Source: Streptomyces fodineus (lineage in GTDB: Bacteria > Actinomycetota > Actinomycetes > Streptomycetales > Streptomycetaceae). From it: a stretch of DNA of 64,000 nt. Positions 4,134-20,302 of the stretch are shown here, piece by piece. Position numbers and translations under genes: made by a program. Position 1 is the stretch's first letter; each line of letters opens with the position of its first letter. The notes beneath the pieces are model-generated. The model was given only the letters and a program-made list of their open reading frames with translations. It searched no databases and was not told where the DNA came from. The stretch spans positions 1,364,001-1,428,000 of the forward strand of contig NZ_CP017248.1 of assembly GCF_001735805.1 (NCBI RefSeq), written 5' to 3'.

Positions 4134-4136
4134 CGC

Positions 4137-4961: not shown

Positions 4962-6167
4962 TCACTCGAACTGGTCGAGCAGGGCGTTCACTTCGGCAAT
5001 GATACGAGACAGCTCTGCCTCGGTCTGGGTGTTCACGGGTGGATGCTCCCTCAACTCCCGTGACAGGTCGGCGAGTTTGTGGAGCCCCTCGACGACGCTC
5101 CACTCGCTGGGCCGCCGGTCCGCGGTCAGCGGGGCGCCGATCTCCCGGGCGTCGAGCAGGATCTCGTGGTCGGGGCGGCGGCGCCGGGCCGGCTCCCCGC
5201 CGTGCTTCTCCACCACGGCCTGTACGGCCTCCTCCACCGTGGTGCGGTCGGCCGGGTCGGTCCAGATGTGGGCCAGCGGCCACAGGTCGACGGGCTCGGC
5301 GGTGCGCGACTCGCGCAGCAGCGCGGACCCGGCGACCAGTTTCAGGCTGCGCACCAGCCGGCGGTCCGAGAGCCGCACGCCCTGGATCAGCAACTGCCGT
5401 ACCAGTTCCCGGTGTTCGCCGAGGACCGGGGTCAGGTCGACGTCCTTGAGCCGCAGGGTGAGCCGGCCCAGCCGTGCCACGGTGACCGTGCCCGAGGTGT
5501 GGTCGGTACGGGTGCGGGCGGGCGGGTCGGTGCCCCGGGCCTGTTCGGCGGCCTGGACGGCGGCGGTGAACCGGCGGCTCTCGTGGTCCCAGCCCACCTG
5601 GAGCAGCCGCTCCAGATCGGTGCCGCCGACCGGTTCGACCTGGAGCCGGATCAGGAAGCGGTCCGAGAACGCGGTCAGGCCGGGATCGTCGGGGATCTCG
5701 TTGGTGGCGCCGAGCAGGCTGATCAGCGGGGCGATCTCGGCGCGGGCGCCGTTGTGGTAGCGGCGTTCGTTGAGCAGGGTGAGCAGGGTGTTGAGGATGG
5801 CGCTGCTGCCCTGGAACACCTCGTCCAGGAAGACGAGTTCGGCCTTCGGCAGCATGCCCTCGGTGCGCACCTGGTACGTGCCCTGCCGGAACTGCTCGAA
5901 GTCCAGCGCGCCGAAGATCTCCGACGGCTCGGTGAACCGGGTGAGCAGATAGCTGAAGTGGCGGGCCTCGATGTGCCGGGCGAGGGCGGAGATCAGCTCG
6001 CTCTTGGCGGTGCCGGTGGGGCCGAGCAGCAGTGCGTGTTCCCGGCAGACCACGGCGAGCTGCAGCAGCCGTACGGCGCGGTCGCGGCCGACGAACTCGC
6101 CGTCGAGCCGCCGCCGCACGTACTCCAGGTCCCTGATGGTGTCTACGGTGTCCTGGCCCCAGCTCAC
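4962..6167 (-). CDS. MoxR-family AAA+ ATPase
   Basis: 401 residues from a GTG at 6167 (other starts would cut into the conserved N-terminus). Walker A GPTGTAKS at 49-56, Walker B LVFLDE at 111-116, followed by the MoxR-typical 'SSAILNTLLTLLNERRYHNG' stretch and sensor-1 'GATNEIPDDP' near 153. MoxR ATPases act as chaperones that usually partner with a vWA protein, remodelling or licensing client complexes. The vWA gene is not visible; it could lie left of the window. The C-terminal 170 residues (lid and a helical extension) are longer than in minimal MoxR proteins. It is 39 bp downstream of the FtsH-like ATPase gene. Confidence 0.93.
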   Translation of the reverse strand: MSWGQDTVDTIRDLEYVRRRLDGEFVGRDRAVRLLQLAVVCREHALLLGPTGTAKSELISALARHIEARHFSYLLTRFTEPSEIFGALDFEQFRQGTYQVRTEGMLPKAELVFLDEVFQGSSAILNTLLTLLNERRYHNGARAEIAPLISLLGATNEIPDDPGLTAFSDRFLIRLQVEPVGGTDLERLLQVGWDHESRRFTAAVQAAEQARGTDPPARTRTDHTSGTVTVARLGRLTLRLKDVDLTPVLGEHRELVRQLLIQGVRLSDRRLVRSLKLVAGSALLRESRTAEPVDLWPLAHIWTDPADRTTVEEAVQAVVEKHGGEPARRRRPDHEILLDAREIGAPLTADRRPSEWSVVEGLHKLADLSRELREHPPVNTQTEAELSRIIAEVNALLDQFE

Positions 6168-6206: not shown

Positions 6207-8109
<1,903 letters not shown>

Positions 8110-8123
<14 letters not shown>

Positions 8124-8268
8124 ACGGGACTCCCCCCACTCGCTTCCAACCGCTTCACCTGCCGGTACAGAGCGAGCACCAAGCCGGCGCCCACCGGCAC
8201 ACACCACACGGACGCGGTCATACGGCACTCCCCCCACTCGCCTCCAGCCGCTCCACCTGCCGGTACAG
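8110..8268. repeat. Direct repeat of a gene junction, offset 98 bp
   Basis: About 60 bp at 8110-8170 recurs at 8208-8268 with a handful of substitutions. Each copy covers the last 16 codons of one reading frame, the ATGA overlap and the first codons of the next. The 33-residue peptide lies between the two copies. Confidence 0.75.
8120..8221 (-). CDS. 33-residue peptide between two operon genes
   Basis: An ATG at 8221 overlaps the upstream stop and the peptide's own stop overlaps the next ATG, so it sits exactly in the translational relay. The peptide starts MTASVWC and ends LYRQVKRLEASGGSPV. Its start resembles the N-terminus of the following ATPase (MTTSVRR) and its end is nearly identical to the C-terminus of the preceding protein (LYRQVERLEASGGSAV). 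It may therefore be a by-product of a tandem duplication of the gene junction. The middle is hydrophobic (VPVGAGLVLAL) and could insert in a membrane. Small peptides are reported in some FtsH ternary systems, so a real role cannot be excluded. Confidence 0.45.
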
Positions 8269-8997
8269 ACGCACACCCGCCAGATACGCGGTGCCGATGC
8301 CGGAGCGGGAGCGCAGCAGGCGCCGGTGTGAGCGTTCCAGGCGGGCGAGGGCGGACCACCAGCAGGCGACCGGGCGGGCCGCGGACAGGTCGGGCGGCGC
8401 GGTCAGGCCGATGCGGGCCCGGCGTATCAGCGACAGGTGCGCCTCCGTGTGGCGCAGCAGTGCGGCCTCGTACACGTCGATCACCAGTTCCCGCTCGCTC
8501 ATCCGGAGCTGGTCGAGCAGCCGGCCGCGCCACAGGGCCTGCGCCGGGGAGGCGGGGGCCTCGCAGTAGACGGCGGTGATCAGGCGGCGGCCCTGGGGGT
8601 GGGTCAGCAACACGTCTTCCAGGAGGAGTTCGGCGTTCGTCTCGCCGACCGGGTCGGGGCGGTCGAGCAGTCCGGTGAGCGGTGAGGCGGCGCGCAGCCG
8701 GCCGGCCAGTGCCGGGTCACCGATGTGCGGCAGTGCGGGCGCGACCACCGCGTGGTGGGCGAGGACGTCCCACAGCGAGCGGGCGGGCGGTACGGCGCGG
8801 ACCGTCTCGGCCGCCAGGTGGGCCTGCGTCCGGCCGCCGACCGCGGCGGCCAGCAGCAGGGCTCCGGCCCCGACCGGCCGTCGTTCGCGGGAGGCCAGGG
8901 TGTCCAGCCGCAGCCGGGCCGCGGTCCGGGCCGCCAGCCGGACGACGGCCGCGGTAATGTCGGGCGGCGGCGCCGCCAGTTCCTGAGGATGCGTCAG
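8218..8997 (-). CDS. Hypothetical helical protein, start unclear
   Basis: The frame is open without interruption from the stop of the JAB gene (9037) to 8218, and the codon pattern looks coding throughout. The only conventional in-frame start is a GTG at 8748, which gives 176 residues and discards about 80 well-formed codons upstream ('ALLLAAAVGGRTQAHLAAET'). I therefore list a tentative CTG at 8997 (259 residues), preceded closely by GAGGGGGAG. The protein is alpha-helical, rich in Leu/Ala/Arg, with no recognised motif. It sits between the JAB isopeptidase and the AAA ATPase. The stop overlaps the next start by 4 bp. Confidence 0.55.
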   Translation of the reverse strand: MTHPQELAAPPPDITAAVVRLAARTAARLRLDTLASRERRPVGAGALLLAAAVGGRTQAHLAAETVRAVPPARSLWDVLAHHAVVAPALPHIGDPALAGRLRAASPLTGLLDRPDPVGETNAELLLEDVLLTHPQGRRLITAVYCEAPASPAQALWRGRLLDQLRMSERELVIDVYEAALLRHTEAHLSLIRRARIGLTAPPDLSAARPVACWWSALARLERSHRRLLRSRSGIGTAYLAGVRLYRQVERLEASGGSAV

Positions 8998-9036
8998 CTC
9001 CCCCTCGGGGGCGCCGGATGCAGCGCCGCCCCGGGG

Positions 9037-10128
9037 TCAGCGGCCGTCGCCCACAACAGCACGCGCAAGGCGGTATCGACCGCGGTCATCTTTCACCCAC
9101 TGTCCGCATTCGCGCACCGAGTCACCGGAGCGTGCGTAGAAACGCAGCAGCCGGTCGTCGCCGCTGAGATTGATCAGTCCGGCCACCTGCCAGGGCTGCT
9201 GGAACGTGCCGAGGTGCAGGTCGACGTCGATGCTCGACAGACCCGACTCGTTCCCCGAGAACAGATGGGTGTGGTACCAGCCCATCAGCTGCCGGTCCTG
9301 CCCGGAGGCGGTGATGCGCTGGTTCACCTCGCGGAAGGAGTCCCCGGTGAAGGTGAAGTGCAGCGCTCCGGCGCCCGAGTGCTCGGCCGGGGTGACCTCG
9401 TTGATCTCCACCAGATAGCGGTCGGCGGGGGCCTCGCCCTCGTCGCCCGCCTGCCCGGAACGGTCCGGGTCGAGGACGCGCAGCACCTTGCCGAGCAGGA
9501 AGCCGCCCTCCTCCAGTCTGCGGGAGAGCTTCATCTCGTGCAGATGGCCGTGGATGTCCCGGGACAGCAGGACCGTCACCTGGCCGAGTCCGGCGGCGTC
9601 GATGCCCAGCTCGGCCGGGTCGACCCCGGGCACCGGCGGTTCGGCCACCTTGCGGACGGTGAAACTGCGCCTGCTCTCACGGAGGTTGAGGTCCATGGTG
9701 CCCTCGACCTCGGGGGTCGAGCGGCCGAGGGCCAGTCCGCTGAGCGAGGGGTGGTCGATGCAGAAGCCCCACACGCTCTCGTCGGGGTCGAGTTGCTGCA
9801 CCACGTGCTGCAGGACCGGGCCGAGCAGCTCGCGCACCGGGTACTCGCGGTCGATGAGGGTCTCTCCGCCCTGGGAGACGATCACCCCGAGCCGGCCGAT
9901 CTGGCTGCGCAGGTTGTGGATCGTGCGCGGGCCGTCCACCAGCCGGGGATCGGGCCTGCGCACGTACCGCAGATGCATGATCAGCGGCTCCTCCGGCTCG
10001 CCGCCGGGCAGGTCCCGGCGCAGTGCCTCGACCATCAGCGAGGAGAGGGTCATCTTGCCCACCAGGTCGAAGGAGGCGCCCTTGTAGAGCAGCACCGTGG
10101 CCGCGCCGGCGCGGTTCTCCTCACTCAT
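9037..10128 (-). CDS. JAB/MPN metalloprotease (deubiquitinase-like isopeptidase)
   Basis: 363 residues from an ATG at 10128 that overlaps the E2 stop by 8 bp. The C-terminal half carries the JAMM zinc site: acidic residue in 'LEEGGFLLGK' (about 206), H286-T-H288 in 'GWYHTHLF', then S298-x-x-D301. This is the catalytic set of MPN+ isopeptidases that remove ubiquitin-like proteins. The N-terminal 190 residues form a separate alpha/beta domain of unknown kind. Its location directly after E1 and E2 genes indicates that it processes the Ub-like precursor or reverses conjugation. The next ORF continues in the same frame just beyond its TGA. Confidence 0.9.
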   Translation of the reverse strand: MSEENRAGAATVLLYKGASFDLVGKMTLSSLMVEALRRDLPGGEPEEPLIMHLRYVRRPDPRLVDGPRTIHNLRSQIGRLGVIVSQGGETLIDREYPVRELLGPVLQHVVQQLDPDESVWGFCIDHPSLSGLALGRSTPEVEGTMDLNLRESRRSFTVRKVAEPPVPGVDPAELGIDAAGLGQVTVLLSRDIHGHLHEMKLSRRLEEGGFLLGKVLRVLDPDRSGQAGDEGEAPADRYLVEINEVTPAEHSGAGALHFTFTGDSFREVNQRITASGQDRQLMGWYHTHLFSGNESGLSSIDVDLHLGTFQQPWQVAGLINLSGDDRLLRFYARSGDSVRECGQWVKDDRGRYRLARAVVGDGR

Positions 10129-11620
10129 CCGGGGTCGCCTCCACACGCTGGAGCTGAAGGAACCGGGAGCGGTCGGCCCGTTCGGTCAGGCCCGCCCGGG
10201 CCAGCCAGGTGGTGCCGCCGATCTCCTTGATGCGCTCCTGGCCCTCCCAGGAGAACGCCCAGGCGGCGGCGTCCCCGTCGAGGTATCCGCCGCGCTCGAT
10301 GATGTCCTGTACGAGGCTGTCGAAGTCCATGGCCATCTTGTAGTCGTGCGGCAGGATCTCGTAGTTGCGGTAGCGCGCCATGTCGATGAGCATCTGGCAC
10401 AGGGAGTACATGCTGAGGTCCGGGGTGTAGTCCGTCATCAGCGGGCCGAGGCAGACCGCGCCCTTGCGGTCCTCGTCGCGGGCGATGTTCGGATGGAACA
10501 CATCCGAGCGCCAGCGCACCCGCGGGGCCTGGATGGGGAATTCGGAGGGCATCCAGACGACCAGTTCGTGCTGGTCGATACGGCGTGGTTCGAGCGGCCA
10601 GGAGTCCAGGTCGTCGGGCGGGGCGAAGCCGGGGACGTGCAGCTGCGCCGTGTACTCGACGGGGAGTTTGTCGTCGTCCATGGAGACGAGCGTGAACTCG
10701 TCGTGCTCGGCGGCGAAGTCGACGATGTCGTCGCGGGCCCGGGCCAGCGCCTCGAAGCGCAGCCAGCTGTCGACACCGGCCGTCGACTCGGCGGACATCT
10801 GCAGCCGGCCGCCGTCGCGCACGCCCTGGTTGTACAGCGGCTGTTCGGGGTCGAGTCGTTGGGCCTCGCCGCCCTCGTCGCGGTAGTCGACGACGGCGCG
10901 CAGCAGGTGCCCGTTGGCGTCCTGGGCCACCTCGGGCCGGTACTGCGCCCAGACGGCCGGGACGAGTTCGCTCGGCAGGGTCGTGTTGGGCACGTAGGGG
11001 ATCTCGAACTGCTGGCCGTCGGGGCCCATGACCTCCAGGCGGGTGTACAGGGTCGGGCGGAAGTCGTACTCGCCGTAGAGGACCTCGACGCCGGGTGCGA
11101 TGGGCGCGGCCCGCTCGCGCAGCTCCTCCAGCCGGTCCGGGGGCATCGCGGCGACCCGGAAGGCGGCCTGCCGGTGGCCTGCGTACAGCTGGACGGCGTC
11201 GGCGTCGATCAGCTCGCGCACCAGCCTGAGCAGTTCGGGATAGGCCTCGCTGCCGACGAACTCCACCGTCCGGTACAGTGTGTCGGCATTCCCGGCGGCG
11301 GCGCCCTGCTCCCGCTCCTCCTCGTCGAGGAAGGCGCGGATCTTCTGCAGGACCTGGTTGCCCGGCCAGCGGCGCAGCACCGTGTCCAGCAACTGCTGGA
11401 CGCCGTCGCGCTGTACGGCCCCCAGCTCCAGCGCGCGCACCACCTGCCGCCAGTAGGCGACGACCTCCTGGCCCGCGTCCCAGCGGGGCCGGGCCTGCGG
11501 CGGGAAGTCCATGTCCTCCAGGACTTCCTCGGCCTGGTTCTGGGTGCGGTAGAGCTCGGCCAGCAGGTCGACCAGCTCGCGTTTGATCTCGGTGGGCAGC
11601 TTGCCCGTGTCGTAGGTCAT
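10121..11620 (-). CDS. Fusion of EAD-like domain, YukD-like ubiquitin domain and E2 enzyme
   Basis: 499 residues from an ATG at 11620. Residues 1-97 resemble effector-associated adaptor domains ('ELVDLLAELYRTQNQAEEVL' then 'GVQQLLDTVLRRWPGNQVL'). Residues about 110-190 form an unassigned alpha/beta domain. Residues 192-278 have a YukD/ubiquitin-like grasp pattern: strand 'TRLEVMGPDGQQFEI', a helix, 'RLDPEQPLYNQGVRDGGRLQ'. Residues 285-499 are an E2 fold with the HPN motif at 376-378 and catalytic Cys390 in 'KGAVCLGPL'. Having a Ub-like domain in the same chain as its E2 is unusual. No C-terminal Gly-Gly is present on the Ub-like domain because it is internal. Confidence 0.85.
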   Translation of the reverse strand: MTYDTGKLPTEIKRELVDLLAELYRTQNQAEEVLEDMDFPPQARPRWDAGQEVVAYWRQVVRALELGAVQRDGVQQLLDTVLRRWPGNQVLQKIRAFLDEEEREQGAAAGNADTLYRTVEFVGSEAYPELLRLVRELIDADAVQLYAGHRQAAFRVAAMPPDRLEELRERAAPIAPGVEVLYGEYDFRPTLYTRLEVMGPDGQQFEIPYVPNTTLPSELVPAVWAQYRPEVAQDANGHLLRAVVDYRDEGGEAQRLDPEQPLYNQGVRDGGRLQMSAESTAGVDSWLRFEALARARDDIVDFAAEHDEFTLVSMDDDKLPVEYTAQLHVPGFAPPDDLDSWPLEPRRIDQHELVVWMPSEFPIQAPRVRWRSDVFHPNIARDEDRKGAVCLGPLMTDYTPDLSMYSLCQMLIDMARYRNYEILPHDYKMAMDFDSLVQDIIERGGYLDGDAAAWAFSWEGQERIKEIGGTTWLARAGLTERADRSRFLQLQRVEATPDE

Positions 11621-12630
11621 CGGGGCGTTCCCTTCCCGCCGGCCTCGGCCAGTTCCAGGTAGCGGATTGCGCGGGTGCGGCCGGTCGAGAGGACCGGCAG
11701 GATCTCGCGCGGGGCCACCCCCAGATCGGCCAGCCGGGCGCCCGGGGGCGCGTCGGCGAGCCGGGTGGACTCGCGGGTGGGCGTGGAGCCGGGCAGCGGC
11801 GCCCAGGTCATCACGGTCTCCTCGGGGGCCAGATGGTCGGTCAGTTCGGCCGGGGTGGACAGCACCGTGTCCGGAACGGGAGCCACCAGCTCGGCGGGGA
11901 TACGGCTGTGCAGCGGGCAGTCGGGGTCGCGGCGCACGGTGACCGGGGTCGCCGTACCGCCGGCGGCGTCCACCCGGATCACGCCGGGGCTGGTGGGCGC
12001 GCCGCACAGCAGGCGGACCGCGGTCACCGCCAGCCAGGAGCCGATCAGCGCGGAGACGGGTGCCGAGGCGCCGGCCTCGGGTACGACGGCGTCGGCGCAG
12101 GCCCACGGGTCGTCCTGGGCGGCGCGGTCGCGGGGGTTGAGGCCGCAGCCGAAGCAGGGCCCGGCCGGCTCGTACAGCCGTATCTCGCCGCCCCAGGCGC
12201 TGGTGCCGCCGTCCAGCAGCGGCGCGCCGACCAGGAGGCAGCGGCCGGCGAGCTGGAGCCGGGCGGCGAGGCTGTCCAGGCAGCTGACGACCAGCGAGGC
12301 GTCCCGCAGTTCCGCCAGGCCCACCCCGCTGACCAGGGGGGAGGTCCGGGCCTCGGCCCGGGTCACCGGGGACAGTTCGGCGAGCCGGCGGGCCGCGGTG
12401 GGTGCCTTGGGCCGGCCGATGTCGGCGGCGCGGAACAGCGGGGCGCGGCTGAGGTTGGACTCCGAGACGTCGTCGGGGTCGCACAGCACCAGCCGGCCGA
12501 CCCCGGCCAGGGCGAGCGCCTGCGCCAACTGGCTGCCCAGGGCGCCCACTCCGCACACCACGACGGTGGCCGCGGCCAGCCGCTGCTGGTCCCAGCCGGT
12601 GATGAGGGCGTGCCGGTCGTAGCGCCCCAT
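11617..12630 (-). CDS. E1-like/ThiF-family adenylyltransferase
   Basis: 337 residues from an ATG at 12630. The Rossmann nucleotide loop GVGALGS starts at 27, with D51, N59, R62 and K75 matching the adenylation-site residues of MoeB/ThiF/E1 enzymes. C159-x-x-C162 and C238 fit a structural zinc site. C178 in 'WACADAVVPEAGASAP' aligns with the thiolating cysteine of ThiF/MoeB. It would activate a Ub-like C-terminus with ATP and pass it to the E2. It overlaps the E2 gene by 4 bp and is one base away from the zinc-protein gene upstream. The last 90 residues are an extra domain that may bind the Ub-like or the E2. Confidence 0.92.
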   Translation of the reverse strand: MGRYDRHALITGWDQQRLAAATVVVCGVGALGSQLAQALALAGVGRLVLCDPDDVSESNLSRAPLFRAADIGRPKAPTAARRLAELSPVTRAEARTSPLVSGVGLAELRDASLVVSCLDSLAARLQLAGRCLLVGAPLLDGGTSAWGGEIRLYEPAGPCFGCGLNPRDRAAQDDPWACADAVVPEAGASAPVSALIGSWLAVTAVRLLCGAPTSPGVIRVDAAGGTATPVTVRRDPDCPLHSRIPAELVAPVPDTVLSTPAELTDHLAPEETVMTWAPLPGSTPTRESTRLADAPPGARLADLGVAPREILPVLSTGRTRAIRYLELAEAGGKGTPR

Positions 12631-12631
12631 G

Positions 12632-13270
12632 TCAGTTCCGCCTCAGCGTGCGGAAGTTCATCGGGCACTGCTGGACGGTCAGTTCGCTGCGCCACTGCTC
12701 GAAGCAGCCGAGTCCGCGCGCCGGGTCCTGGTGGACGGCCTTGCGGCAGCCGGGCTTCTCGGGCGAGCAGGGGCAGACGACCACGGTCTCGAACAGCCGG
12801 AAGGTGTGGGTGCACACGAAGCAGGCGTTGCGCTGCCTCGGGTGGCCGAGCACCGGGTCGTCCGGCATCAGCCGCACGGTGTGCAGGGTGTCCGGCCGGG
12901 GGTCGGTGTTGTCGACGCCGCGGAAGAAGGCCGCCTGTGCCCCCGGGTCGGGCGGGTCGGCGGGCGGGGCCTGGCCGCTGCACGGCAGGTTGCGCAGGTG
13001 GTGGGTGACGTCGGCCAGCTTGCCGTCCTCGGCGTGGCGCAGATACACGGTGTCGTCCAGCCGGAAGGTGTGGCCGCACACCCGGCAGGGGGCGCGGCGC
13101 CGGGAGCCGGGCCTGCGCCAGGTGCCGAGCCAGCGCGAGTCCAGGGTGGTGGAGGCCGGTCCGTCGGCGCCGGCCACCTGCGGGTTGTCGCCGCGCTGCA
13201 GCCCGCGCTCGAAGGCGCTGACGACGCCGGCCGGGGCGGAGGTCGCGGTGGGCGTGTCGGGGGTCGTCAT
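12632..13270 (-). CDS. Double treble-clef/RING-like zinc protein, possible E3
   Basis: 212 residues from an ATG at 13270 (ATGA overlap with the CHAT gene). Two homologous cysteine-rich units are visible: residues 62-97 (C62, C65, H79, H90, C97, with 'CRVCGHTFRLDDTVYLRH') and residues 150-202 (C150, C153, C166, C168, C175, H180, C189, C202, with 'CFVCTHTFRLFETVVVCPC' and 'GLGCFEQW'). The order CxxC, CxC, His, C..W, CP is like cross-brace RING fingers. Next to E1, E2, Ub-like and JAB genes, a role as E3 ligase or zinc adaptor is plausible. The family assignment is inference from pattern only. No membrane segment. Confidence 0.7.
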   Translation of the reverse strand: MTTPDTPTATSAPAGVVSAFERGLQRGDNPQVAGADGPASTTLDSRWLGTWRRPGSRRRAPCRVCGHTFRLDDTVYLRHAEDGKLADVTHHLRNLPCSGQAPPADPPDPGAQAAFFRGVDNTDPRPDTLHTVRLMPDDPVLGHPRQRNACFVCTHTFRLFETVVVCPCSPEKPGCRKAVHQDPARGLGCFEQWRSELTVQQCPMNFRTLRRN

Positions 13271-14118
13271 GCGGCGTGGCCCCTTCGGGAGAGCTGGAAG
13301 ACCCCGTCCGATGTGTGACCCTCCAGAGCGAGGGCCGCGCGGCCGGCCTCGAACGCCCGGTCGATGAGGCCGGAGTGGGCCAGGGAGTCGTAGAAGCCCT
13401 TGGCGAAGGCGAGCGCGGCGGCGTCACCGAGCTCTCCGTGGGTGCCGACGACGGTGCCGGCGCAGCCGAGCAGGGAGGTCGCGAACCTCCCCCAGCAGGA
13501 GTTGAGGACGACGCAGTCGAGCGGCCCGTGCAGGGCGAGCACCTCGGCCAGGACGTCCACCGGGACCGGCGCGGAGGTGCCCGTCTCGTCCTCGAGGAGC
13601 AGCCGCCCGCCTCGCGTGCCGTGTCCGGCGAAGTGCACGACGTGCGGCCGTACCGCCTGGAGCCGGGGCAGGACGTCGGACACCCGGGCCGCCGGCTGGA
13701 CCACCACCGTCAGCCGGCCCGCGGAGCGGTCCGCCGCCTCCCGGATGACGCGCTGCTCGGCGCCCAGCCGCAGCCTGGCCTCGTCCAGCGGCGCGGACAT
13801 CAGGCACAGCACCCGCAGTGCGGTGGCCGCGCCCCGGCCGGTGAGCGCGGCGAGGCCGGCGTGCCCGGGGTACTGGGCGGCCACCGCGTCGACGAGGCCG
13901 CCGAGCGTGACGTCCCTGAAGCGGCCCTGGTCCACGGTCCGGCACACCGTGCGCCACCAGGAGGCGGCGGGCAGGGGCGGGGCGAACGGCGGCAGCAGGG
14001 CGGGGCTGATTCCGATGTCCTCGAGAAATGCGTGACTGCTGAGTACGTCCGGAAATAATTCGCCCAGTGTTTCGAATGCGCCGGCATCGCGCAGTTGTGT
14101 CCACGTCGGACTGGCCAT
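13267..14118 (-). CDS. EAD-CHAT caspase-like protease
   Basis: 283 residues from the ATG at 14118, with GGGGGACG eight bases upstream. Residues 1-92 are a small helical adaptor similar in layout to effector-associated domains ('WTQLRDAGAFETLGELF' ... 'LVDAVAAQYPGHAGLAAL') and to the start of the E2 fusion protein. Residues 100-283 are a CHAT/caspase-fold domain with catalytic His166 in 'HFAGHG' and Cys208 in 'VVLNSCWG'. It is the first gene of the minus-strand operon, divergent from the kinase gene. It is likely the executioner or processing protease, recruited through matching EADs. No signal peptide, so it acts in the cytosol. Confidence 0.88.
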   Translation of the reverse strand: MASPTWTQLRDAGAFETLGELFPDVLSSHAFLEDIGISPALLPPFAPPLPAASWWRTVCRTVDQGRFRDVTLGGLVDAVAAQYPGHAGLAALTGRGAATALRVLCLMSAPLDEARLRLGAEQRVIREAADRSAGRLTVVVQPAARVSDVLPRLQAVRPHVVHFAGHGTRGGRLLLEDETGTSAPVPVDVLAEVLALHGPLDCVVLNSCWGRFATSLLGCAGTVVGTHGELGDAAALAFAKGFYDSLAHSGLIDRAFEAGRAALALEGHTSDGVFQLSRRGHAA

Positions 14119-14235
14119 GTGTGCGTCCCCCGAGCCAACTACCGTTGCTTCCCAGGCCGTTGGTGAGAAGGGTACGCGCAGTGACGCTCTGTGGGTGTAG
14201 TTTCGGATTCCGCAGCACACTTATCGGGGGCGGGT
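14119..14235. promoter_or_regulatory. Divergent intergenic region between two conflict systems
   Basis: About 117 bp separate the CHAT start (minus) from the kinase start (plus), so both operons must be driven from here. A TAGTTT at 14197-14202 could be a -10 for the plus strand and a TAGTTG on the minus strand (14136-14141) could serve the other side, but neither has a convincing -35. No clear operator palindrome is visible. Confidence 0.35.
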
Positions 14236-15300
14236 TTGATCGAGCATCTGGAAATGATCACCTGTGGTGGCCGCGATGCCGGAAAATCGATCTTCGAGAT
14301 CGATTTTGATCAGCAGGGAGTCAGTGCCCGGGACGGATTCCGGGAGCGCCGCGGTCTGCTGGTGCACGGCGGCGGGGAGCATGTCGTCCAGCGCATCGCC
14401 CACAGCGACGCGGCGCGCCGGGAGCTGGAACGGACCATCAGGACGGCCGACGTGCTGGTGCGCCGGCTCGGCGTCCTCGGCTATCCGCCCGAGCTGAGCC
14501 GCATCATCGGCTACCGTCCGGACGGCCGGGCGCCCTTCCTGGTCGCCACCCGGCGCGGCCGGCCGCTGTCCGAGATGGGCGACCGGTTACCCCTCGCCGC
14601 GGGCCAGTTGTGGGCCGTCGTGGACGGCATCCTCGCGGTACTGCGGCACCTCGGGGACCTGCGTCTGGTGCACCGGGACATCCGGCCCGAGACCCTGTGG
14701 TGGGACGGGACCACGGTGCAGCTGGCCGACTTCGGTCTCACGGTGGACGAGGGCGAGCCACGCGGCGGGACGGCCGGCGCCGACCCGTGGCGGTCCCCGG
14801 AGCAGGCCAAGGGCCAGGGCCGGGCCGACTGCCGGGACGACGTGTACTCCGCCGGCGCGGTCATCTTCCATCTCGCCACCGGAGAGGAGGCCACCGGCGC
14901 GGCGGACATGCGCGACCGGGTGCGCTGGCTCGACTCCAGCCTGCGCAACCTGCTGGAGGGGGTCTTCACCGACGAGGCGCGCCAACGCGTGAGCGCGTAC
15001 ACGCTCCGGCTGCGCCGCGGCACCCAGCCGGGATTCACGGACACCTCCGACTTCCAGCGCCCGCCCAGTGTCTCCGAGCTCGAACAGCAGGCCCGCCAGC
15101 ACTTCCGTGAACTGCGCGCCCGGCAGCAGGCCTTCCACCAGCAGCAGCAGCGCAGACCGTCGTATCCGCAGCCGCCGGCCCGCCCCCCGGGCAGCCGCAA
15201 GGTCCTGCCCGTCGACGTCCGGCGGTTCGCCGTCCTGTCCTTCGCCGTGGGCGTCACGATCCTCGGCGTGCTGATCGCCCTCGTCCTGGCGCTGGCCTGA
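14236..15300 (+). CDS. Membrane-anchored kinase-like protein, possibly a pseudokinase
   Basis: 354 residues if it starts at TTG 14236, which has GGGGG five bases upstream; in-frame GTG 14191 and ATG 14254 are alternatives. The fold is a Ser/Thr kinase: catalytic-loop HRD at 146-148, DFG at 165-167, and 'DPWRSPEQAKGQG' as activation segment. Several residues deviate: the ATP-binding lysine position reads 'VVQRIA', and the catalytic loop reads HRDIRPET instead of HRDxKPxN, losing the lysine and asparagine. A Pro/Gln-rich linker leads to a C-terminal transmembrane helix (about 325-348), so the domain faces the cytosol. First gene of the GTPase operon, 13 bp before the GTPase. Confidence 0.8.
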   Translation: MIEHLEMITCGGRDAGKSIFEIDFDQQGVSARDGFRERRGLLVHGGGEHVVQRIAHSDAARRELERTIRTADVLVRRLGVLGYPPELSRIIGYRPDGRAPFLVATRRGRPLSEMGDRLPLAAGQLWAVVDGILAVLRHLGDLRLVHRDIRPETLWWDGTTVQLADFGLTVDEGEPRGGTAGADPWRSPEQAKGQGRADCRDDVYSAGAVIFHLATGEEATGAADMRDRVRWLDSSLRNLLEGVFTDEARQRVSAYTLRLRRGTQPGFTDTSDFQRPPSVSELEQQARQHFRELRARQQAFHQQQQRRPSYPQPPARPPGSRKVLPVDVRRFAVLSFAVGVTILGVLIALVLALA

Positions 15301-15313
15301 CCGGAGGAGTGAC

Positions 15314-16390
15314 ATGGCAGCACAGGTGAGGTGCCCCATCTGCCTCGACATGGTCGACTGGGCGAAGGCCGAGACCGTCACCCTCAACGCCGACGGCCGG
15401 CCCGAACAGCTCGTCCGGCTCGACGGCGAGGACGACGTGCGCTGGAACCACCGCCGCCTCAACGCCTACCGGCTGTGCGCCGGCGGCGGCGAACCGCACG
15501 TCCTGCCCGGGCGGTACGGCGACTTCGGCGAGCCCCTGGTCATCGGTGTGGTCGGCGAGTCCGCGGCCGGCAAGAGCCATCTGCTCGCCGCCATGCTCGG
15601 CACGCTCTCCGACGTCGACCGGATGGCCCGCCTCGGCCTGGTCGTCGGCGGGCTCGATCTGAAACTGCACCAGCGCTACCTCAAGGACGTCGTCCGCCCC
15701 TTCCTGGACCAGGGCCAGGGCCTGGCCGGCACCCCGGCCCAGCCGCCGGAGTTCACCGACGCCCTGTGGATCCACAACAGCAACACCAACCGCAGCTTCG
15801 CCGTCGCCTTCTTCGACGTCTCCGGCGAGTGGCTCGCCGACCACGACGCCGAGGTGCCCTTCCTCGGCGCGGTCAGCGCGCTGGTCTTCGTGGTCGACCC
15901 GACCCGGATCCGCGGACTGACCACCGCCACCGGCAGCGTCACCGGCGACCCGTCCTTCGGTGTCGTCCTGGACAAGATCGGGCGGCTGCAGGGGATGGAC
16001 GGCTCCCAGTTCCTGCCGCTGCCCGCCGCCGTCGTGATCGGCAAGTGCGACCTGCTGCAGCACCACGAACCCCTCGTCGACCGCTGGTTCCAGAACGTCT
16101 CGCCCGACGAGGAACTGCGGCTCGACACCGTGGAGAGGGAGAGCGAGGACGCCTACGCCTTCCTCAGGTCACGCGGCGCCCGTGGCTGGCTCGCCCCCTT
16201 CGTGCGCTGTGACCGCACCACGCTGCACTTCGCCACCGCCACCGGCCACAAGCCGGTCGAGACGGACGGCGTGCAGCGCTCCCCGCGCGGCAGTTTCGCG
16301 CCGCGCCGGACCCTCAAACCCATGCTCGCCCTCTTCGCCATGTGCGGGGTCCTCGGCCCCACCGACCTCGGCCAGGGAGCTGTCCGATGA
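15314..16390 (+). CDS. P-loop GTPase of the GAP1/double-GTPase conflict family
   Basis: 358 residues from an ATG at 15314 with GGAGGAG eight bases upstream. The N-terminus has a small CPIC zinc-knuckle-like start. The GTPase core shows Walker A GESAAGKS at 81-88, DVSG at 168-171 as the switch-2 DxxG, and GKCD at 243-246 as the base-specificity motif. GTPases of this kind are known next to GAP1 proteins in conflict systems of multicellular bacteria and are thought to set an activation threshold. The stop overlaps the GAP1 start (ATGA), which supports a complex between the two products. No membrane segment. Confidence 0.82.
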   Translation: MAAQVRCPICLDMVDWAKAETVTLNADGRPEQLVRLDGEDDVRWNHRRLNAYRLCAGGGEPHVLPGRYGDFGEPLVIGVVGESAAGKSHLLAAMLGTLSDVDRMARLGLVVGGLDLKLHQRYLKDVVRPFLDQGQGLAGTPAQPPEFTDALWIHNSNTNRSFAVAFFDVSGEWLADHDAEVPFLGAVSALVFVVDPTRIRGLTTATGSVTGDPSFGVVLDKIGRLQGMDGSQFLPLPAAVVIGKCDLLQHHEPLVDRWFQNVSPDEELRLDTVERESEDAYAFLRSRGARGWLAPFVRCDRTTLHFATATGHKPVETDGVQRSPRGSFAPRRTLKPMLALFAMCGVLGPTDLGQGAVR

Positions 16391-18543
16391 CGACGGTCGA
16401 CCAGATCCTCTTCGGCTGGGCCGAACGGGACCACGAAGGCAACGCCGGGGTCCGCCCCGTCGCACACTCCGGGCTGCGCACCATCGACCGCTGGGCCAAG
16501 CGGCTCCAGTACGTCTGGGCCACCCAGGACGGCCAGGGCGAGCAGCCGGAGCTGACGGCCAGCCTCGTCCACCTGGTGTTCGACGACGAGGCGGCCGTCC
16601 TGCGCAAGCTGCCCTCCCGCAACCCGCACGGCCGGGGCGGCGCCACCCTGACCCACGTCCTGGTCGGTGACCCGCACGCGATCGACGGCCGGCTCGCCCT
16701 GGGACTGCACGACTGGCCGGGCTGGCGGGACCGCGAACCCGACGGCACCGAGGGCCGGCTCGCCCCGCTCGACCTCGACGACCTCAGGGAGGCGGCCCGG
16801 CCCGGCCTCGCCGCACTGCGCGACCGGGTCGCCGAGGTCCCGGCCGTGCAGCTCACCGCGCTCGTCGCCCGGGTGCTCGCCGAGCCCGCCGAGGACTTCA
16901 GCGTCATCACCCGGCCGCAGCTCGCCCTGCCGGCGATGACCGCCCTGCTCGACATCGCCGGGCCCGTCTCCGGCCGGCCCTGGACCTTCGCCAGCCGCGA
17001 GTCCACCGACAAGGGCAGCCATCAGCCCCGGGTGGTGTTCCTCGCCGCCCGCCCGCCCCAGTCGATGTACATCAACCAGCGCCGGCGCGTCGACCTGGCC
17101 GAGGCGGCGCCCGACACGGACACCGCCCGGTTCGCCGCCCAGCTGGTGGAGCTGTACCGGGAGGCCGGACACGCGGCGCTGGAGCGGATCCGCCCGCGGC
17201 ACCCGCTGCACACCGCGGACGACGTGGACGCCTGGCGGCGGTCCGTGCCGGTCGTGGACGGCCGGATCGCCGACCCTCGGGTGCGCCTGGACATCTTCCT
17301 CGACGACGACCTGCTGGCGCGGGCCTCCGCACGTGGCGTCCTGGTGCACGAACGGGCCCGGATGACCGGCGAGTTGCGCAAGCAGCCCGTGGAGTGGCTC
17401 GCCGCGGCGCTGCGCCGCTGGCACCGCCTGGAGCGGCGTGCCGCACTCCATCCCGATCTGCGGGAGCTGCTGGTGGCCGAGGCCGTGGAGGTCTGCCTCA
17501 CCGGACAGGGGCACCAGTTCGACGCCCTGGTGCAGGCGACACGGGACGCGGAGCCGGCGCCCCCGCTGGTGGCCAGGATCTTCGGCGGAAAGGTGCCGTC
17601 CACCGGTCTCGACCTGAGCCGGGCCGGACACCGCCGGCTGCTGATCGTGGCCCTGGCCCTGCGCATGCCCGCCACCGCGCTCGACCAGGCCGATCTCCTC
17701 GCCGCCAGCCCGGCGGACGAGCTGCTGGACCTCGTCATGCGCTACGCCGACGGCTACCCGGAGGCCATGCACCTGGTACTGCGGCACCTCGGCGACGCCG
17801 GCCGGAGCCCGGTCGCGGCGCGGCTGTGGTACGACCACGGCCTGCTGCTCGAGACGGTGGACCGCATCGCCGCCGGCGACCGTCCGAAGGAGGTCGACTG
17901 CTTCCGCCATCTGCTCCTCGCCGCGCACGGCCCGCGGCTGGACCGCGAGACGACCTCGGCGCTGGTCCAACACGCCGGGGCCCGTGCGCCGTTGGGGCTG
18001 TACGCCGCCGCGCTGGAGCTGGCCGCGGACAGCTCCGCCGAGCAGCCGGTCCGGCACGAGCTCTCGGAGCAGTTCCTGCGCGCCGAGGGCTATGCGAGCT
18101 CCGGCGGGGGGTCCGCGTACGGGTCCCGGCCGCGCGGTCCGGTGCTCGGCAGACCCGACGCGGGGTACGCGCCGGCCGCCGCCCCGCCGGCCTCGCCCTC
18201 CGCCGCGGTGGGTGCGCACCAGTGGGAGCGCCCGGCTCCCACCGTCGCGGGGGCGCACCATCCGCGCCCGGCCGCCGCGAGTCCGGCGACGGGCCACCAC
18301 TCCCCCGGCGCCGTCCCGGATCCCGCCCGATGGGATCCGTACGGTCCGTCCGCCCGGCAGCAGCAGGGCTGGGGGCCGCCCGCCTCGCACACGGGTGGCA
18401 GCCCGCAGGCCCGGTCGGCCGACCGCGACGGCTGGTTCGGCGGCAGGGGGCAGATCGACGGCGTGAGCATGTTCTTCCTGGCGGCGCTGCTGCTCGTCCT
18501 GCTCTGCGCCGTCGGGTACGTCCTGGTGACCTCCATGCCCTGA
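16387..18543 (+). CDS. GAP1-like GTPase-associated protein with C-terminal membrane anchor
   Basis: 718 residues from an ATG at 16387. The N-terminal about 230 residues ('VDQILFGWAERDHEGNAGV' ... 'RPWTFASRES') have the look of the GAP1-N domain, followed by helical middle and C-terminal domains to about residue 575. A long low-complexity Pro/Ala/Gly/Gln linker follows, then a single transmembrane helix 'VSMFFLAALLLVLLC' at the extreme C-terminus, so the bulk is cytosolic and tethered. It is coupled to the GTPase gene. GAP1 proteins are known partners of conflict-system GTPases; biochemical activity is not established, and the name does not imply GTPase activation. Confidence 0.75.
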   Translation: MTTVDQILFGWAERDHEGNAGVRPVAHSGLRTIDRWAKRLQYVWATQDGQGEQPELTASLVHLVFDDEAAVLRKLPSRNPHGRGGATLTHVLVGDPHAIDGRLALGLHDWPGWRDREPDGTEGRLAPLDLDDLREAARPGLAALRDRVAEVPAVQLTALVARVLAEPAEDFSVITRPQLALPAMTALLDIAGPVSGRPWTFASRESTDKGSHQPRVVFLAARPPQSMYINQRRRVDLAEAAPDTDTARFAAQLVELYREAGHAALERIRPRHPLHTADDVDAWRRSVPVVDGRIADPRVRLDIFLDDDLLARASARGVLVHERARMTGELRKQPVEWLAAALRRWHRLERRAALHPDLRELLVAEAVEVCLTGQGHQFDALVQATRDAEPAPPLVARIFGGKVPSTGLDLSRAGHRRLLIVALALRMPATALDQADLLAASPADELLDLVMRYADGYPEAMHLVLRHLGDAGRSPVAARLWYDHGLLLETVDRIAAGDRPKEVDCFRHLLLAAHGPRLDRETTSALVQHAGARAPLGLYAAALELAADSSAEQPVRHELSEQFLRAEGYASSGGGSAYGSRPRGPVLGRPDAGYAPAAAPPASPSAAVGAHQWERPAPTVAGAHHPRPAAASPATGHHSPGAVPDPARWDPYGPSARQQQGWGPPASHTGGSPQARSADRDGWFGGRGQIDGVSMFFLAALLLVLLCAVGYVLVTSMP

Positions 18544-18599
18544 CCCCCGCCCCTCCTCAGCTCCCCACACCGACCGCCGGACGACACGATTGACGCCGC

Positions 18600-19766
18600 A
18601 TGACATCGACTGAAGAGGCAACACCGCCGCACCACGGGTCGGTTCCCGCGCAGCGCACCGGCTCCGATCCGGAACTCGACCGCATAGCCGGCCGGATCCG
18701 CGAGCTCGCCGGCCGCGCGCGCGCCGACGGCTCCGACAGCCGGGTACTGGACCATGTCGTAGCCGACCTGGAACGGGGCGGTGCCACCCTGGCCGGCACC
18801 GATCTGGTCGCCGCCTATCCGCCCGAGGTGCTGCTCCCGGACGCGCCCTCGAAGGGCCGGGGCACGCTGGAGGGCTGGCTCGGCGTCATCCGCGACGTGC
18901 TGGTGTTCGCGCCCATCGCGCTCACCTGGTGGCGGCTGCGCGGTGCGCTCGACGCCTACGATGCGACCCGCAGCACGGACCCCTTCCTGCTCGGCTGGGC
19001 CCGCGGCTTCCCGCAGGGCCACCCGCCCGAACCGACCACCGTGACCCTGGGCACCTCCGCGCTCCACGTCACGCTGCTCATCCTGGTGGTCGTCGTGCTG
19101 ACCCTGGCACTGCACGCCCTGCAGCGCAGCCGGGAGCGGCGGCTGTCCCGCGAGGAGGAACGCGGGCAGCTCGCCACCGAGCTGGCGCTCGCGACCTTCC
19201 TGCTCTCCACACCCGCACGGCCGGCCGGCAAACCGCTGGACAGCCGGAGCGCGGAGAAGCTCGCCTCCCAGCTCAACGCCGGTACGGAAGCACTGCAACT
19301 GGCGTTGCACCGTACCTCCCAGGAGATCACGGCCGCACTGGAGACCGGGCCCGGCAGCAGGATCCAGAGCGCGCTGGACGGCTGGACCAAGACGGTCGAC
19401 GAACTGACCCGGCTGATCCGCGGGCTCACCCCGCCGAACCAGCTGGCGCAGGACCTGATCCGGCTGCGGGAGCAGACCGCCGAGGACGAGGCGAAGCTGC
19501 GCGCCGCCATCGAGACGCTCGTCGCCGACCTGCGGCGCGCGCAGGAGGCGACCGGGAACGAGATCCACCGGCACGACCAGGCCGTCGCCGCGGTCCGCGA
19601 CCTGGCCCGCAGCCTCGGGGAGACCTTGCTGGTCTTCACCGAGCGGGCGGAGAACCTGGTGGACTCCACCCGGGGCATCTGGCAGCTCGTCGACCGACTC
19701 GACAGCCGTCTGGCGTCCGGCGGCCTGGACAACGCCGATCCACCGCCGTACCGGGGTGGGCCGTGA
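18600..19766 (+). CDS. Two-TM coiled-coil membrane protein, ZorA/MotA-like topology
   Basis: 388 residues from an ATG at 18600. A polar N-terminal region is followed by TM1 near 99-118 ('VLVFAPIALTWWRLRGAL'), a loop of about 40 residues, TM2 near 157-177 ('HVTLLILVVVVLTLALHAL'), and then about 200 residues of cytosolic helix and coiled coil ('DELTRLIRGLTPPNQLAQDL'). The long cytosolic tail after paired TMs recalls ZorA and MotA-type stator subunits, although those usually have more TM helices. The next gene, overlapping by GTGA, encodes a ZorB/MotB-like single-TM protein, which supports a two-component membrane complex. Sequence identity to ZorA cannot be tested here. Confidence 0.6.
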   Translation: MTSTEEATPPHHGSVPAQRTGSDPELDRIAGRIRELAGRARADGSDSRVLDHVVADLERGGATLAGTDLVAAYPPEVLLPDAPSKGRGTLEGWLGVIRDVLVFAPIALTWWRLRGALDAYDATRSTDPFLLGWARGFPQGHPPEPTTVTLGTSALHVTLLILVVVVLTLALHALQRSRERRLSREEERGQLATELALATFLLSTPARPAGKPLDSRSAEKLASQLNAGTEALQLALHRTSQEITAALETGPGSRIQSALDGWTKTVDELTRLIRGLTPPNQLAQDLIRLREQTAEDEAKLRAAIETLVADLRRAQEATGNEIHRHDQAVAAVRDLARSLGETLLVFTERAENLVDSTRGIWQLVDRLDSRLASGGLDNADPPPYRGGP

Positions 19767-20302
19767 GCCGGCGGCCGCCGCAGCGGGCGGTCGCCGGGCG
19801 CACCGTGCTGCTCGCCGGGTGGCTCTTCGCCGATCTGCTCCTGCTGCTGCTCGTGATCGCGCTCGGTTCTCTGCCGCGCGAGCAGCGCACGGGTGCGACA
19901 CCCAAGCCCACCGCGCCGTCCAGCCCGCCGCCGAGCACCCAGCCGGCGGAGCGCGGGCTGGTGCTCAAGCCGTGCAGCTTCACGGTGCGGACGGGCAGTG
20001 CCGCGTCGGTACGGCAGCAGTTCGGCGGGCAGCTGCGCGGGGCGGGGGTGGCGGGCCGTACGGCGGGTTTCGTGCTCTCCTTCGGTACGGCACCGGATCC
20101 GGGGCCGGGCCAGGACGCCGCCAACAAGGTCAACTCGATGATCACCAACGGGTTCTCCCGCTTCAAGCAGGCCCCCAAGCGGGGCTACTGGAAGGGCGGG
20201 CCGTCCGGCCAGGTCAGGATCGACGTCTTCTTCCTGGCCACACCCGACGGGGACACCTCGTTCCCGAAACGGTGCCACTCCTCGGACGACGAGGGCGGGT
20301 GA
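19763..20302 (+). CDS. Single-TM protein with acidic residue in the helix, ZorB/MotB-like
   Basis: 179 residues from a GTG at 19763. A short basic N-terminus precedes one TM helix (about 14-34) reading 'GWLFADLLLLLLVIAL'. The Asp inside this helix matches the ion-conducting Asp of MotB, ExbD and ZorB ('xDLLxxLLxxF'). A Pro-rich linker leads to an extracytoplasmic alpha/beta domain of about 110 residues with two cysteines. That domain is not an evident OmpA peptidoglycan-binding domain. Last gene of the plus-strand system; no terminator is obvious in the 51 bp before the convergent regulator gene. Confidence 0.6.
   Translation: MSRRPPQRAVAGRTVLLAGWLFADLLLLLLVIALGSLPREQRTGATPKPTAPSSPPPSTQPAERGLVLKPCSFTVRTGSAASVRQQFGGQLRGAGVAGRTAGFVLSFGTAPDPGPGQDAANKVNSMITNGFSRFKQAPKRGYWKGGPSGQVRIDVFFLATPDGDTSFPKRCHSSDDEGG

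What the first reader, a model, noticed from the sequence alone, without database searches (positions are those of the whole stretch)
14236..20302. Divergent second conflict system: kinase-like protein, GTPase, GAP1-like protein and stator-like pair
Seen: a tight plus-strand operon back to back with the Ub-like operon, sharing a 117-bp intergenic region. Known: GAP1/GTPase modules are found in the same class of NTP-threshold conflict systems. Inference: the two operons may form one composite island, with the GTPase complex at the membrane and the Ub-like and protease arm in the cytosol.
Basis: partly seen in the sequence, partly recalled or inferred. Interest (0 to 1): 0.8.

Follow-up and report, generated by a model that had tools for sequence, protein, structure and literature searches.

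The report
GTPase-stator module beside ubiquitin-like system
A Streptomyces genome carries, back to back, a membrane-bound GTPase switch with an ion-motor-like protein pair and a bacterial ubiquitin-like system with a caspase-like protease; the two stand together in a few Streptomyces, although each also exists without the other elsewhere, and the motor-like pair seems to be an overlooked part of several bacterial conflict systems.

Summary
The genome is Streptomyces-like; a five-gene plus-strand operon (14236-20302) lies 117 bp from an FtsH-type ternary/ubiquitin-like (fvm) operon. It encodes a TM-anchored kinase-fold protein (probably a pseudokinase), a DO-GTPase2-type GTPase, a diverged GAP1-like protein with TM, and a stator-like pair: a coiled-coil membrane protein and a 1-TM protein with an invariant membrane Asp (AGW-x-[FY]-AD).

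All 9 loci carrying this form of the module have the fvm operon divergently adjacent; eight are close relatives, the ninth is 27-53% identical. But six fvm-bearing genomes lack the module, and two genomes have the five genes with no fvm operon in the 20 kb fetched. The composite is real, but a rare union of separable modules.

The GTPase and GAP-like protein are sisters of tubulin-type GTPase systems (Kaur et al. 2020), without tubulin, vWA or FNIII genes. New here: the stator-like pair recurs in actinobacteria beside HSP70/GrpE, vWA/PP2C and GAP1 genes, which that paper's text does not mention. Its profile's only PDB matches are TolR and ExbD, weak (E 0.04-0.18) and confined largely to a 15-residue membrane stretch; a narrower profile missed them. 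No function was tested.

The parts
14236..15300 (+). kinase-fold protein, C-terminal TM (residues 336-354); probable pseudokinase
   Evidence: PF00069 E 6.2e-10 on the C-lobe; HRD and DFG present, catalytic-loop Asn is Thr, no Lys in the beta-3-like VVQRI segment (read by eye); PDB matches to bacterial Ser/Thr kinases
15314..16390 (+). DO-GTPase2-type TRAFAC GTPase with N-terminal CxxC...C..H zinc-ribbon-like motif
   Evidence: PF19993 E 5.5e-6; hhalign E 6.6e-15 over 290 columns to 8 GTPases next to true GAP1-N2 genes; GESAAGKS, FFDVSGE, GKCD motifs
16387..18543 (+). GAP1-like protein, C-terminal TM (696-714)
   Evidence: no Pfam hit; blastp to GAP-like proteins of 11 distant loci E 4e-6 to 8e-18 in a 17-protein database; N-domain profile against true GAP1-N2 proteins scores above 94 of 94 completed column shuffles
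18600..19766 (+). MotA/ZorA-like? membrane protein with long cytosolic coiled coil
   Evidence: hydropathy: one TM (153-171) in the window protein, two in most relatives; low-confidence model with helices 88-122 and 150-203 (pLDDT 57); F-x-P-x3-TW ... FLxxW invariant in 17 of 17 aligned
19763..20302 (+). TolR/ExbD/MotB/ZorB-like 1-TM protein with membrane Asp24 and extracytoplasmic alpha/beta domain
   Evidence: A18-G19-W20, A23-D24 invariant in 18 of 18; profile hits in PDB are only TolR and ExbD, E 0.04-0.18, TM segment alone only TolR; AF2 TM 15-35 plus b-a-b-a-b-b domain; OmpA-like Z up to 7.4, not best
14119..14235 (.). 117-bp divergent intergenic region shared by both operons
   Evidence: conserved in 8 aligned loci; promoter activity untested
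13267..14118 (-). EAD1-CHAT caspase-like protease
   Evidence: PF12770 E 1.4e-10, PF19955 E 5e-7; HFAGHG at 162 and NSCWG at 206
12632..13270 (-). RING-like E3 candidate
   Evidence: weak PF14446 E 0.0078
11617..12630 (-). ThiF/E1
   Evidence: PF00899 E 9.4e-45
10121..11620 (-). EAD1 - YukD-like Ubl - E2 fusion
   Evidence: PF19955, PF20006, PF00179
9037..10146 (-). JAB peptidase with fvmJAB_N domain (start may be 10128)
   Evidence: PF20011 E 3.4e-50
8218..9036 (-). fvmX1; start codon unclear
   Evidence: PF19998; frame open to 9036, no ATG/GTG/TTG upstream of 8748
6207..8123 (-). FtsH-type AAA+ protein
   Evidence: PF00004 E 1.5e-39
4962..6167 (-). MoxR AAA+
   Evidence: PF20030 E 8.3e-74
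3867..4931 (-). fvmX2 (4137-4931) and fvmX3 (3867-4133)
   Evidence: PF20000 E 4.1e-66, PF19999 E 1.2e-27
3196..3870 (-). TPR-like protein of the fvm operon
   Evidence: weak TPR hits; homologue in G582
1..3158 (-). fvmX7 (1536-3158) and beta-propeller protein running off the window (1-1539)
   Evidence: PF20005 E 8.2e-95; WD40 hits

Best explanation
A composite conflict island made of two separable modules. Plus operon: a membrane-seated GTPase switch in which a TM-anchored (pseudo)kinase, a DO-GTPase2 and a GAP1-like protein sit on a stator-like pair: a coiled-coil membrane subunit, and a 1-TM subunit whose membrane Asp would carry ions and whose extracytoplasmic domain would feel the cell envelope. 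Minus operon: an FtsH-type ternary/Ubl system whose conjugation and chaperone steps release an EAD1-coupled CHAT protease. Proposed working: an envelope disturbance, such as phage entry, changes the state of the stator-like pair; its cytosolic coiled coil passes this to the GTPase/GAP complex; GTP turnover sets a threshold; the switched complex licenses the Ubl/FtsH/CHAT arm to kill or arrest the cell. Shown: gene content, adjacency in the nine loci, relatedness to GTPase-centric and FtsH ternary systems, recurrence of the pair with other GTPase-system parts. Inferred: ion flow, sensing, coupling of the arms, defence.
For: Adjacency in 9 of 9 loci: window, seven other Streptomyces records, and G582 with MotA 34%, GAP 37%, E1 53% identity. 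Right-hand neighbours fall into about four settings: LytTR and/or GH65 genes (window, L002-L005), L006, L007/L008, G582. Pairwise identities of E1 and UblE2 track those of GTPase and MotA (r 0.88-0.99). GTPase-centric relatedness. All five genes in the same order in two other genomes. MotB-like partner with the motif beside the MotA-like gene in 24 of 26 non-own genomes. Full-length and TM-only MotB profiles match only TolR and ExbD in the PDB. Pair found beside HSP70/GrpE and GAP1, vWA/PP2C, or DO-GTPase2/GAP1-N2 genes. ZorB D24 is needed for Zorya defence (PMC11890865, passages). [quoted passage not shown]
Against: Each arm also exists without the other. Eight of the nine composite loci are close relatives found by a close-relative search, so they are not independent; identity correlations could reflect vertical descent alone. 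The PDB matches are weak (E 0.04-0.18), come from two proteins in five constructs, rest on about 15 residues when the TM is searched alone, vanish for the extracytoplasmic domain alone, and were absent with a narrower 9-sequence profile, whose best matches were AF-9 and CutA. No stator family matches in Pfam or NCBIfam. The MotA-like protein has at most 2 predicted TM helices and a poor model. The MotB-like domain fits chorismate mutases and designed proteins (Z 8.0-8.5) slightly better than OmpA-like domains (Z up to 7.4). No expression or infection data.
Confidence: 0.5

Rival explanations
1. Two independent conflict systems that happen to share an island and a promoter region; they hitch-hike together but do not talk to each other.
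For: Each module occurs without the other; both are rare, with fvmJAB_N in 4 of 392 Streptomyces, one of the four without the module.
Against: 9 of 9 divergent adjacency, kept in the far-diverged G582 and across several flanks; of 14 of 295 Streptomyces genomes with a MotA-like match, only the window's was next to a kinase-GTPase-GAP operon in the stretches fetched.
Confidence: 0.27
2. An envelope or developmental machine of filamentous actinobacteria (cell-wall stress, division, sporulation) rather than anti-phage immunity; GTPase, kinase-like and stator-like parts steer assembly at the membrane and the Ubl arm disposes of it.
For: Relatives stand with tubulin, HSP70/GrpE, PP2C and vWA genes; the pair lies beside a giant surface-type protein in one small genome; DO-GTPases are also tied to psp envelope-stress operons (PMC11237479, passage).
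Against: Sparse presence and CHAT/EAD1 effector logic fit conflict systems better (PMC7159879); conserved developmental machines are usually present in most species of a genus (general knowledge).
Confidence: 0.15
3. The MotA/MotB-like pair is a static membrane anchor or scaffold, not an ion channel (compatible with any of the readings above).
For: At most 2 predicted TM helices in the MotA-like protein; no curated stator family hit; weak, short TolR/ExbD match; classical peptidoglycan-binding Asp/Arg of OmpA-like domains not evident (my reading; that motif is recalled).
Against: Invariant Asp inside the TM helix in 18 of 18 sequences; TolR and ExbD are the only PDB matches of the broad profile.
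Confidence: 0.33

Closest known systems
FtsH ternary system, Ubl-containing variant (Kaur et al. 2020, PMC7159879, section 21)
   Same: MoxR, FtsH-type AAA+ protein, beta-propeller gene, fvmX1/X2/X3/X7, JAB, E1, RING-like, EAD1-Ubl-E2, EAD1-caspase-like effector
   Different: a DO-GTPase/stator-like operon set back to back; that section does not mention one
[quoted passage not shown]
   Same: GTPase and GAP-like protein are sisters of those beside Tubulin_2 genes; kinase-fold domain upstream or fused
   Different: no tubulin, vWA or FNIII gene in the operon; a stator-like pair instead
GAP1-N2 systems of the HSP70/GrpE and kinase/PP2C/vWA themes (PMC7159879, section 29)
   Same: the same MotA/MotB-like pair stands beside such genes in other Streptomyces
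   Different: different partner set; the paper's text has no 'MotA', 'MotB', 'ExbB', 'TolR' or 'ExbD'
Zorya ZorA/ZorB
   Same: TM Asp, extracytoplasmic domain, long cytosolic tail on the larger subunit (PMC11890865, abstract and passages)
   Different: no ZorC, ZorD or ZorE found; only weak coiled-coil matches to ZorA (E 0.0071 in PADLOC; 0.0032 in PDB)
TolR and ExbD
   Same: Asp-bearing TM segment: shown aligned for TolR, by coordinates for ExbD
   Different: AGW-x-[FY]-AD motif; no match of the extracytoplasmic domain; actinobacterial hosts

Membership tests
FtsH ternary (fvm) system | FtsH-type AAA+ component and MoxR | tested here: met
   PF00004, PF20030 and fvmX1/X2/X3/X7
FtsH ternary (fvm) system | Ubl conjugation set with EAD1 on the Ubl and on a caspase-like effector | tested here: met
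   the RING hit is weak (E 0.0078)
FtsH ternary (fvm) system | beta-propeller fused to vWA | tested here: inconclusive
   beta-propeller repeats at 1-1539; the gene runs off the window, vWA not seen
GAP1-N2 GTPase-centric system | DO-GTPase with zinc ribbon | tested here: met
   PF19993 just under the cut-off (26.7 of 27 bits), hhalign E 6.6e-15; zinc-ribbon motif by eye
GAP1-N2 GTPase-centric system | GAP1 (N, M, C domains) | tested here: inconclusive
   no Pfam hit; N-domain profile alignment E 0.05, above all 94 completed shuffles; the nine composite sequences alone gave nothing (E 0.21)
GAP1-N2 GTPase-centric system | FNIII-repeat protein in the operon | tested here: not met
   no FN3 hit in the five products at E up to 1
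5:2 ion-driven stators (MotAB, TolQR, ExbBD, ZorAB) | small subunit with one TM and conserved Asp | tested here: met
5:2 ion-driven stators (MotAB, TolQR, ExbBD, ZorAB) | large subunit of the MotA_ExbB family, 3-4 TM | tested here: not met
   no PF01618 in 6 of 6 members scanned singly at E up to 1; alignment scan of 17 shows only 25 of 69 families; at most 2 TM in the window protein and most relatives
5:2 ion-driven stators (MotAB, TolQR, ExbBD, ZorAB) | 5:2 assembly and ion flow | not testable with these tools
   needs complex prediction or cryo-EM
Zorya | ZorC plus ZorD or ZorE genes | tested here: not met
   no such PADLOC hit in the rows shown for five of five plus-operon products and five other proteins (two lists were cut at 25 rows)
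Active Ser/Thr kinase | VAIK Lys, HRD Asp with Asn, DFG | tested here: not met
   VVQRI in 8 of 8 close members (Lys position by eye); Asn kept in 1 of 8; DFG altered in 2 of 8; HRD Asp lost in G582 and in 10 of 10 aligned distant loci, DFG Asp in G582 and 9 of these 10 (10 of the 11 distant loci aligned)

The most novel reading that the evidence does not exclude
Actinobacterial GTPase-centric conflict systems generally run on a previously unrecognised ion-driven rotary (5:2) motor or force sensor, and in these Streptomyces that membrane motor-GTPase switch triggers a ubiquitin-like, caspase-like death pathway.
Probability: 0.22. Interest if true: 0.88.

Novelty: new variant of a known kind. 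Interest (0 to 1): 0.6.

Why it matters
Both arms were predicted in 2020 as separate systems whose core pairs 'are not exchanged' (PMC7159879, passage). Here one island holds both cores side by side, and a recurrent stator-like pair with no Pfam or NCBIfam stator match is found in several kinds of GTPase-system neighbourhood. If the pair conducts ions, it would give these systems a physical input (cell envelope and ion gradient, as in Zorya) and a concrete residue to test (Asp24), linking envelope sensing to a bacterial ubiquitin-like death pathway.

Tried and rejected
The genome-contig scan with the MotA-like protein used the only scan and returned only close relatives. Plasmid searches for the JAB and MotA-like proteins found nothing. 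Direct Pfam detection of GAP1 failed. The MotA-like profile was compared with the ~880-aa TM protein and the vWA protein of tubulin systems, and the MotB-like profile with the vWA protein, as possible ancestors: no relation (E 0.13-0.46). AF2 of the MotA-like protein was too poor for a fold search. Foldseek with the MotB-like model gave no E below 1e-3; in the second look MotB of H. pylori and OmpA domains appear at Z 6-7.4, below chorismate mutases and designed proteins at 8.0-8.5, and TolR/ExbD periplasmic domains were not among the 50 rows shown, so the fold is not decisive. The 9-sequence MotB profile matched AF-9 and CutA, no stator; the 18-sequence one matched only TolR and ExbD; its TM part alone matched only TolR, three constructs of one protein, over 15 residues, its extracytoplasmic part alone matched efflux pumps and others weakly. 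A home-made TM matrix scored E. coli MotB below background proteins, so the resemblance is to TolR/ExbD rather than to E. coli MotB. Coiled-coil matches of the MotA-like profile to ZorA lie among many unrelated coiled coils and are not used as evidence. In one search two of five hhalign comparisons silently returned a stale result (gapTub-trueGAP, gapComp-gapTub) and are not used; gapComp-trueGAP gave nothing (E 0.21). In one search, 94 of 100 shuffles returned a score; shuffling columns is a mild control.

Not in print: four paper searches bear on this; no listed paper was seen to link DO-GTPase systems with a stator-like pair. Most listed papers were seen as listings only, and the library holds open-licence papers only. 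Papers: PMC7159879 abstract, found passages and sections 21, 27, 29, 33; PMC11890865 abstract and found passages; PMC11237479 found passages; others only as listings.
Full report
WHAT IS THERE. The window lies in a 9.70-Mb single-contig genome; seven near relatives of the island are named Streptomyces. Five plus-strand genes run from 14236 to 20302 with short gaps or overlaps. The minus-strand CHAT gene begins at 14118, leaving 117 bp between the operons. Predicted TM helices: kinase-fold protein 336-354, GAP-like 696-714, MotB-like 15-35. For the MotA-like protein hydropathy calls one in the window protein (153-171) and two in most relatives; the low-confidence model has helices 88-122 and 150-203. 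So four of the five products are predicted membrane proteins and the GTPase is not.

THE MINUS OPERON is a known kind. Pfam gives fvmX1, X2, X3, X7, bpMoxR, an FtsH-type AAA+ protein, fvmJAB_N, ThiF, EAD1-YukD-like Ubl-E2, a weak RING, EAD1-CHAT and a beta-propeller gene that runs off the window. This matches the Ubl-containing FtsH ternary systems of Kaur et al. 2020 (PMC7159879, section 21). It is rare: fvmJAB_N in 4 of 392 Streptomyces, 1 of 101 and 1 of 296 Actinomycetota, the window genome included each time; fvmX1 in 7 of 394 genomes of the class, 6 above cut-off, the window's included.

THE PLUS OPERON. The GTPase scores just under the DO-GTPase2 cut-off (26.7 of 27 bits), and its profile aligns over 290 columns (E 6.6e-15) with eight GTPases standing next to true GAP1-N2 genes. 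Searching 61 Streptomyces genomes with the GTPase gave 14 with a match: the window genome, 11 distant homologues of 37-43% identity and 2 short weak matches. In all 11 distant loci the GTPase lies beside (4) or fused to (7) the kinase-fold domain and next to a GAP-like protein, 10 of 11 with a C-terminal TM; 9 of the 11 have a homologue of one Tubulin_2 protein, and the other two run off their contigs. None of these 11 showed a MotA/MotB-like or fvm gene in a blastp scan at E up to 1e-3. The window module is thus a sister of the tubulin-type GTPase systems without tubulin, vWA or FNIII genes. The GAP-like protein has no Pfam hit. Aligned with its relatives, its N-terminal 300 residues match true GAP1-N2 proteins end to end at E 0.05, above all 94 completed column shuffles; the nine composite sequences alone gave nothing. 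Suggestive, not proof. The kinase-fold protein has HRD and DFG but Thr for the loop Asn and no Lys in the beta-3-like segment (by eye). G582 and 9 of 10 aligned distant relatives lost both HRD Asp and DFG Asp, the tenth only the HRD Asp. It is best read as a pseudokinase.

THE STATOR-LIKE PAIR. No Pfam or NCBIfam stator model matched the members scanned. With homologues from other families, the small protein shows invariant A-G-W and A-D in its only TM helix in 18 of 18 sequences. Its profile, run over 177,635 distinct PDB sequences, returned five matches with E up to 10: three TolR and two ExbD constructs (E 0.04-0.18). These are two proteins, not five independent finds. As controls, the TM segment alone matched only TolR (3 of 3, E 0.23-0.46, 15 residues from the Asp on) and the extracytoplasmic part alone matched no stator; an earlier 9-sequence profile matched AF-9 and CutA only. 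That the only matches fall in the ion-motor superfamily, with the Asp in register, is suggestive. The extracytoplasmic domain is alpha/beta and OmpA-like at best. In Zorya the equivalent Asp (ZorB D24) and the ZorA tail are needed for defence (PMC11890865, abstract and passages). I call the pair stator-like, not a member of MotA_ExbB.

DO THE TWO OPERONS BELONG TOGETHER? Nine loci carry the module in this form: the window, L002-L008 and G582. All nine have the Ubl operon divergently adjacent. Eight are close relatives, so the independent support is mainly G582, which is far diverged (27-53% identity; E1 53%, MotA 34%, MotB 30%) and has the kinase-fold and GTPase fused, yet keeps the whole arrangement, and the differing right-hand neighbours (about four settings). 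Pairwise identities of the two arms correlate (0.88-0.99), which vertical descent could also give. On the other side, six fvm-bearing genomes lack the module: G523, G876 and G939 have no GTPase match; G693 has only a tubulin-type one; G900 and G955 have only short P-loop matches. Several of these genomes are fragmented or 81-88% complete, and G939 shows only part of the fvm set. In the Streptomyces sample 3 of 4 fvm carriers have the module. And G821 and G829 have all five genes in the same order with no fvm operon in the 20 kb fetched (one weak AAA+ match in L111); G768 is cut by its contig end, with only a GAP-like tail before MotA. Pfam saw no kinase in the G821 protein; it matches only my own profile. 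Whole-genome absence of fvm in these was not tested separately.

A WIDER FAMILY. MotA-like proteins were found in 15 of 374 genomes of the class and 14 of 295 Streptomyces: 26 distinct genomes besides the window's. A MotB-like partner with the motif is beside it in 24 of 26; one of the two misses is cut by its contig end. By neighbourhood in the stretches fetched: kinase-GTPase-GAP operon in 3 (one truncated); HSP70 + GrpE in 5, with a GAP1-profile gene in the stretch in 4 (GAP1-M and GAP1-C confirmed by Pfam in the one scanned, L142); homologues of a vWA and a PP2C gene (Pfam-confirmed in L144) in 8; DO-GTPase2 in 2, one with GAP1-N2 and one below the Pfam cut-off; other or unresolved in 8. 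HSP70/GrpE and kinase/PP2C/vWA are two themes of GAP1-N2 systems in Kaur et al. section 29; that paper's text has no MotA, MotB, ExbB, TolR or ExbD; its figures are not held. The pair therefore looks like an overlooked membrane part of actinobacterial GTPase-centric systems.

HOW IT MAY WORK (inference). Envelope disturbance acts on the extracytoplasmic domain or the ion path of the pair; the coiled coil relays this to pseudokinase, GTPase and GAP-like protein; GTP turnover sets a threshold; in the composite island the output is the FtsH/Ubl/CHAT arm. A DO-GTPase in psp operons has been called predicted to act in membrane stress (PMC11237479, passage), which fits. In genomes with the module alone the output must differ, so the module is a general switch and the Ubl arm one possible effector.

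VERDICT. Observation confirmed; interpretation partly supported. New variant of a known kind. The most interesting part is the recurrent stator-like pair, whose ionic function is untested.

Noticed in passing
window 8218-9036 (-): fvmX1 has no ATG/GTG/TTG start upstream of 8748 although homology reaches about 9009; in the window its frame is closed by the JAB stop codon, while in five relatives it lies in another frame and runs on into the JAB end. Possible frameshift, unusual start or sequencing error.
   Followed up: partly
L123:9647-19893; L122:9168-10425: In small actinobacterial genomes (about 1.3-1.4 Mb) the MotA/MotB-like pair stands in other surroundings; in L123 next to a 2,986-aa repetitive surface-type ORF, reminiscent of SiiAB beside a giant adhesin (recalled).
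   Followed up: no
L117:3737-17592: MotA/MotB-vWA-PP2C-like cluster close to a BrxC/BrxD ATPase and a helicase with NOV_C domain, i.e. inside a likely defence island.
   Followed up: no
L053:11455-12587; L054:16314-17464: Two fvm loci of family f85 carry a plus-strand pair (about 237-aa TM protein plus about 140-aa protein) near the Ubl-E2 gene, where the GTPase operon is absent.
   Followed up: no
L111:5162-8837; L112:2501-4045; L113:16550-18205: Five-gene modules outside Streptomyces are flanked by further kinase-profile genes.
   Followed up: no
L142:6405-19862; L118, L139-L141 similar: Operon of a ~1,450-aa protein with no Pfam hit (L142 scanned), a ~100-130-aa protein, GrpE, HSP70, HSP70-like/TPR, MotA-like, MotB-like and a ~500-690-aa protein; in L142 GAP1, PP2C and kinase genes on the other strand.
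   Followed up: partly
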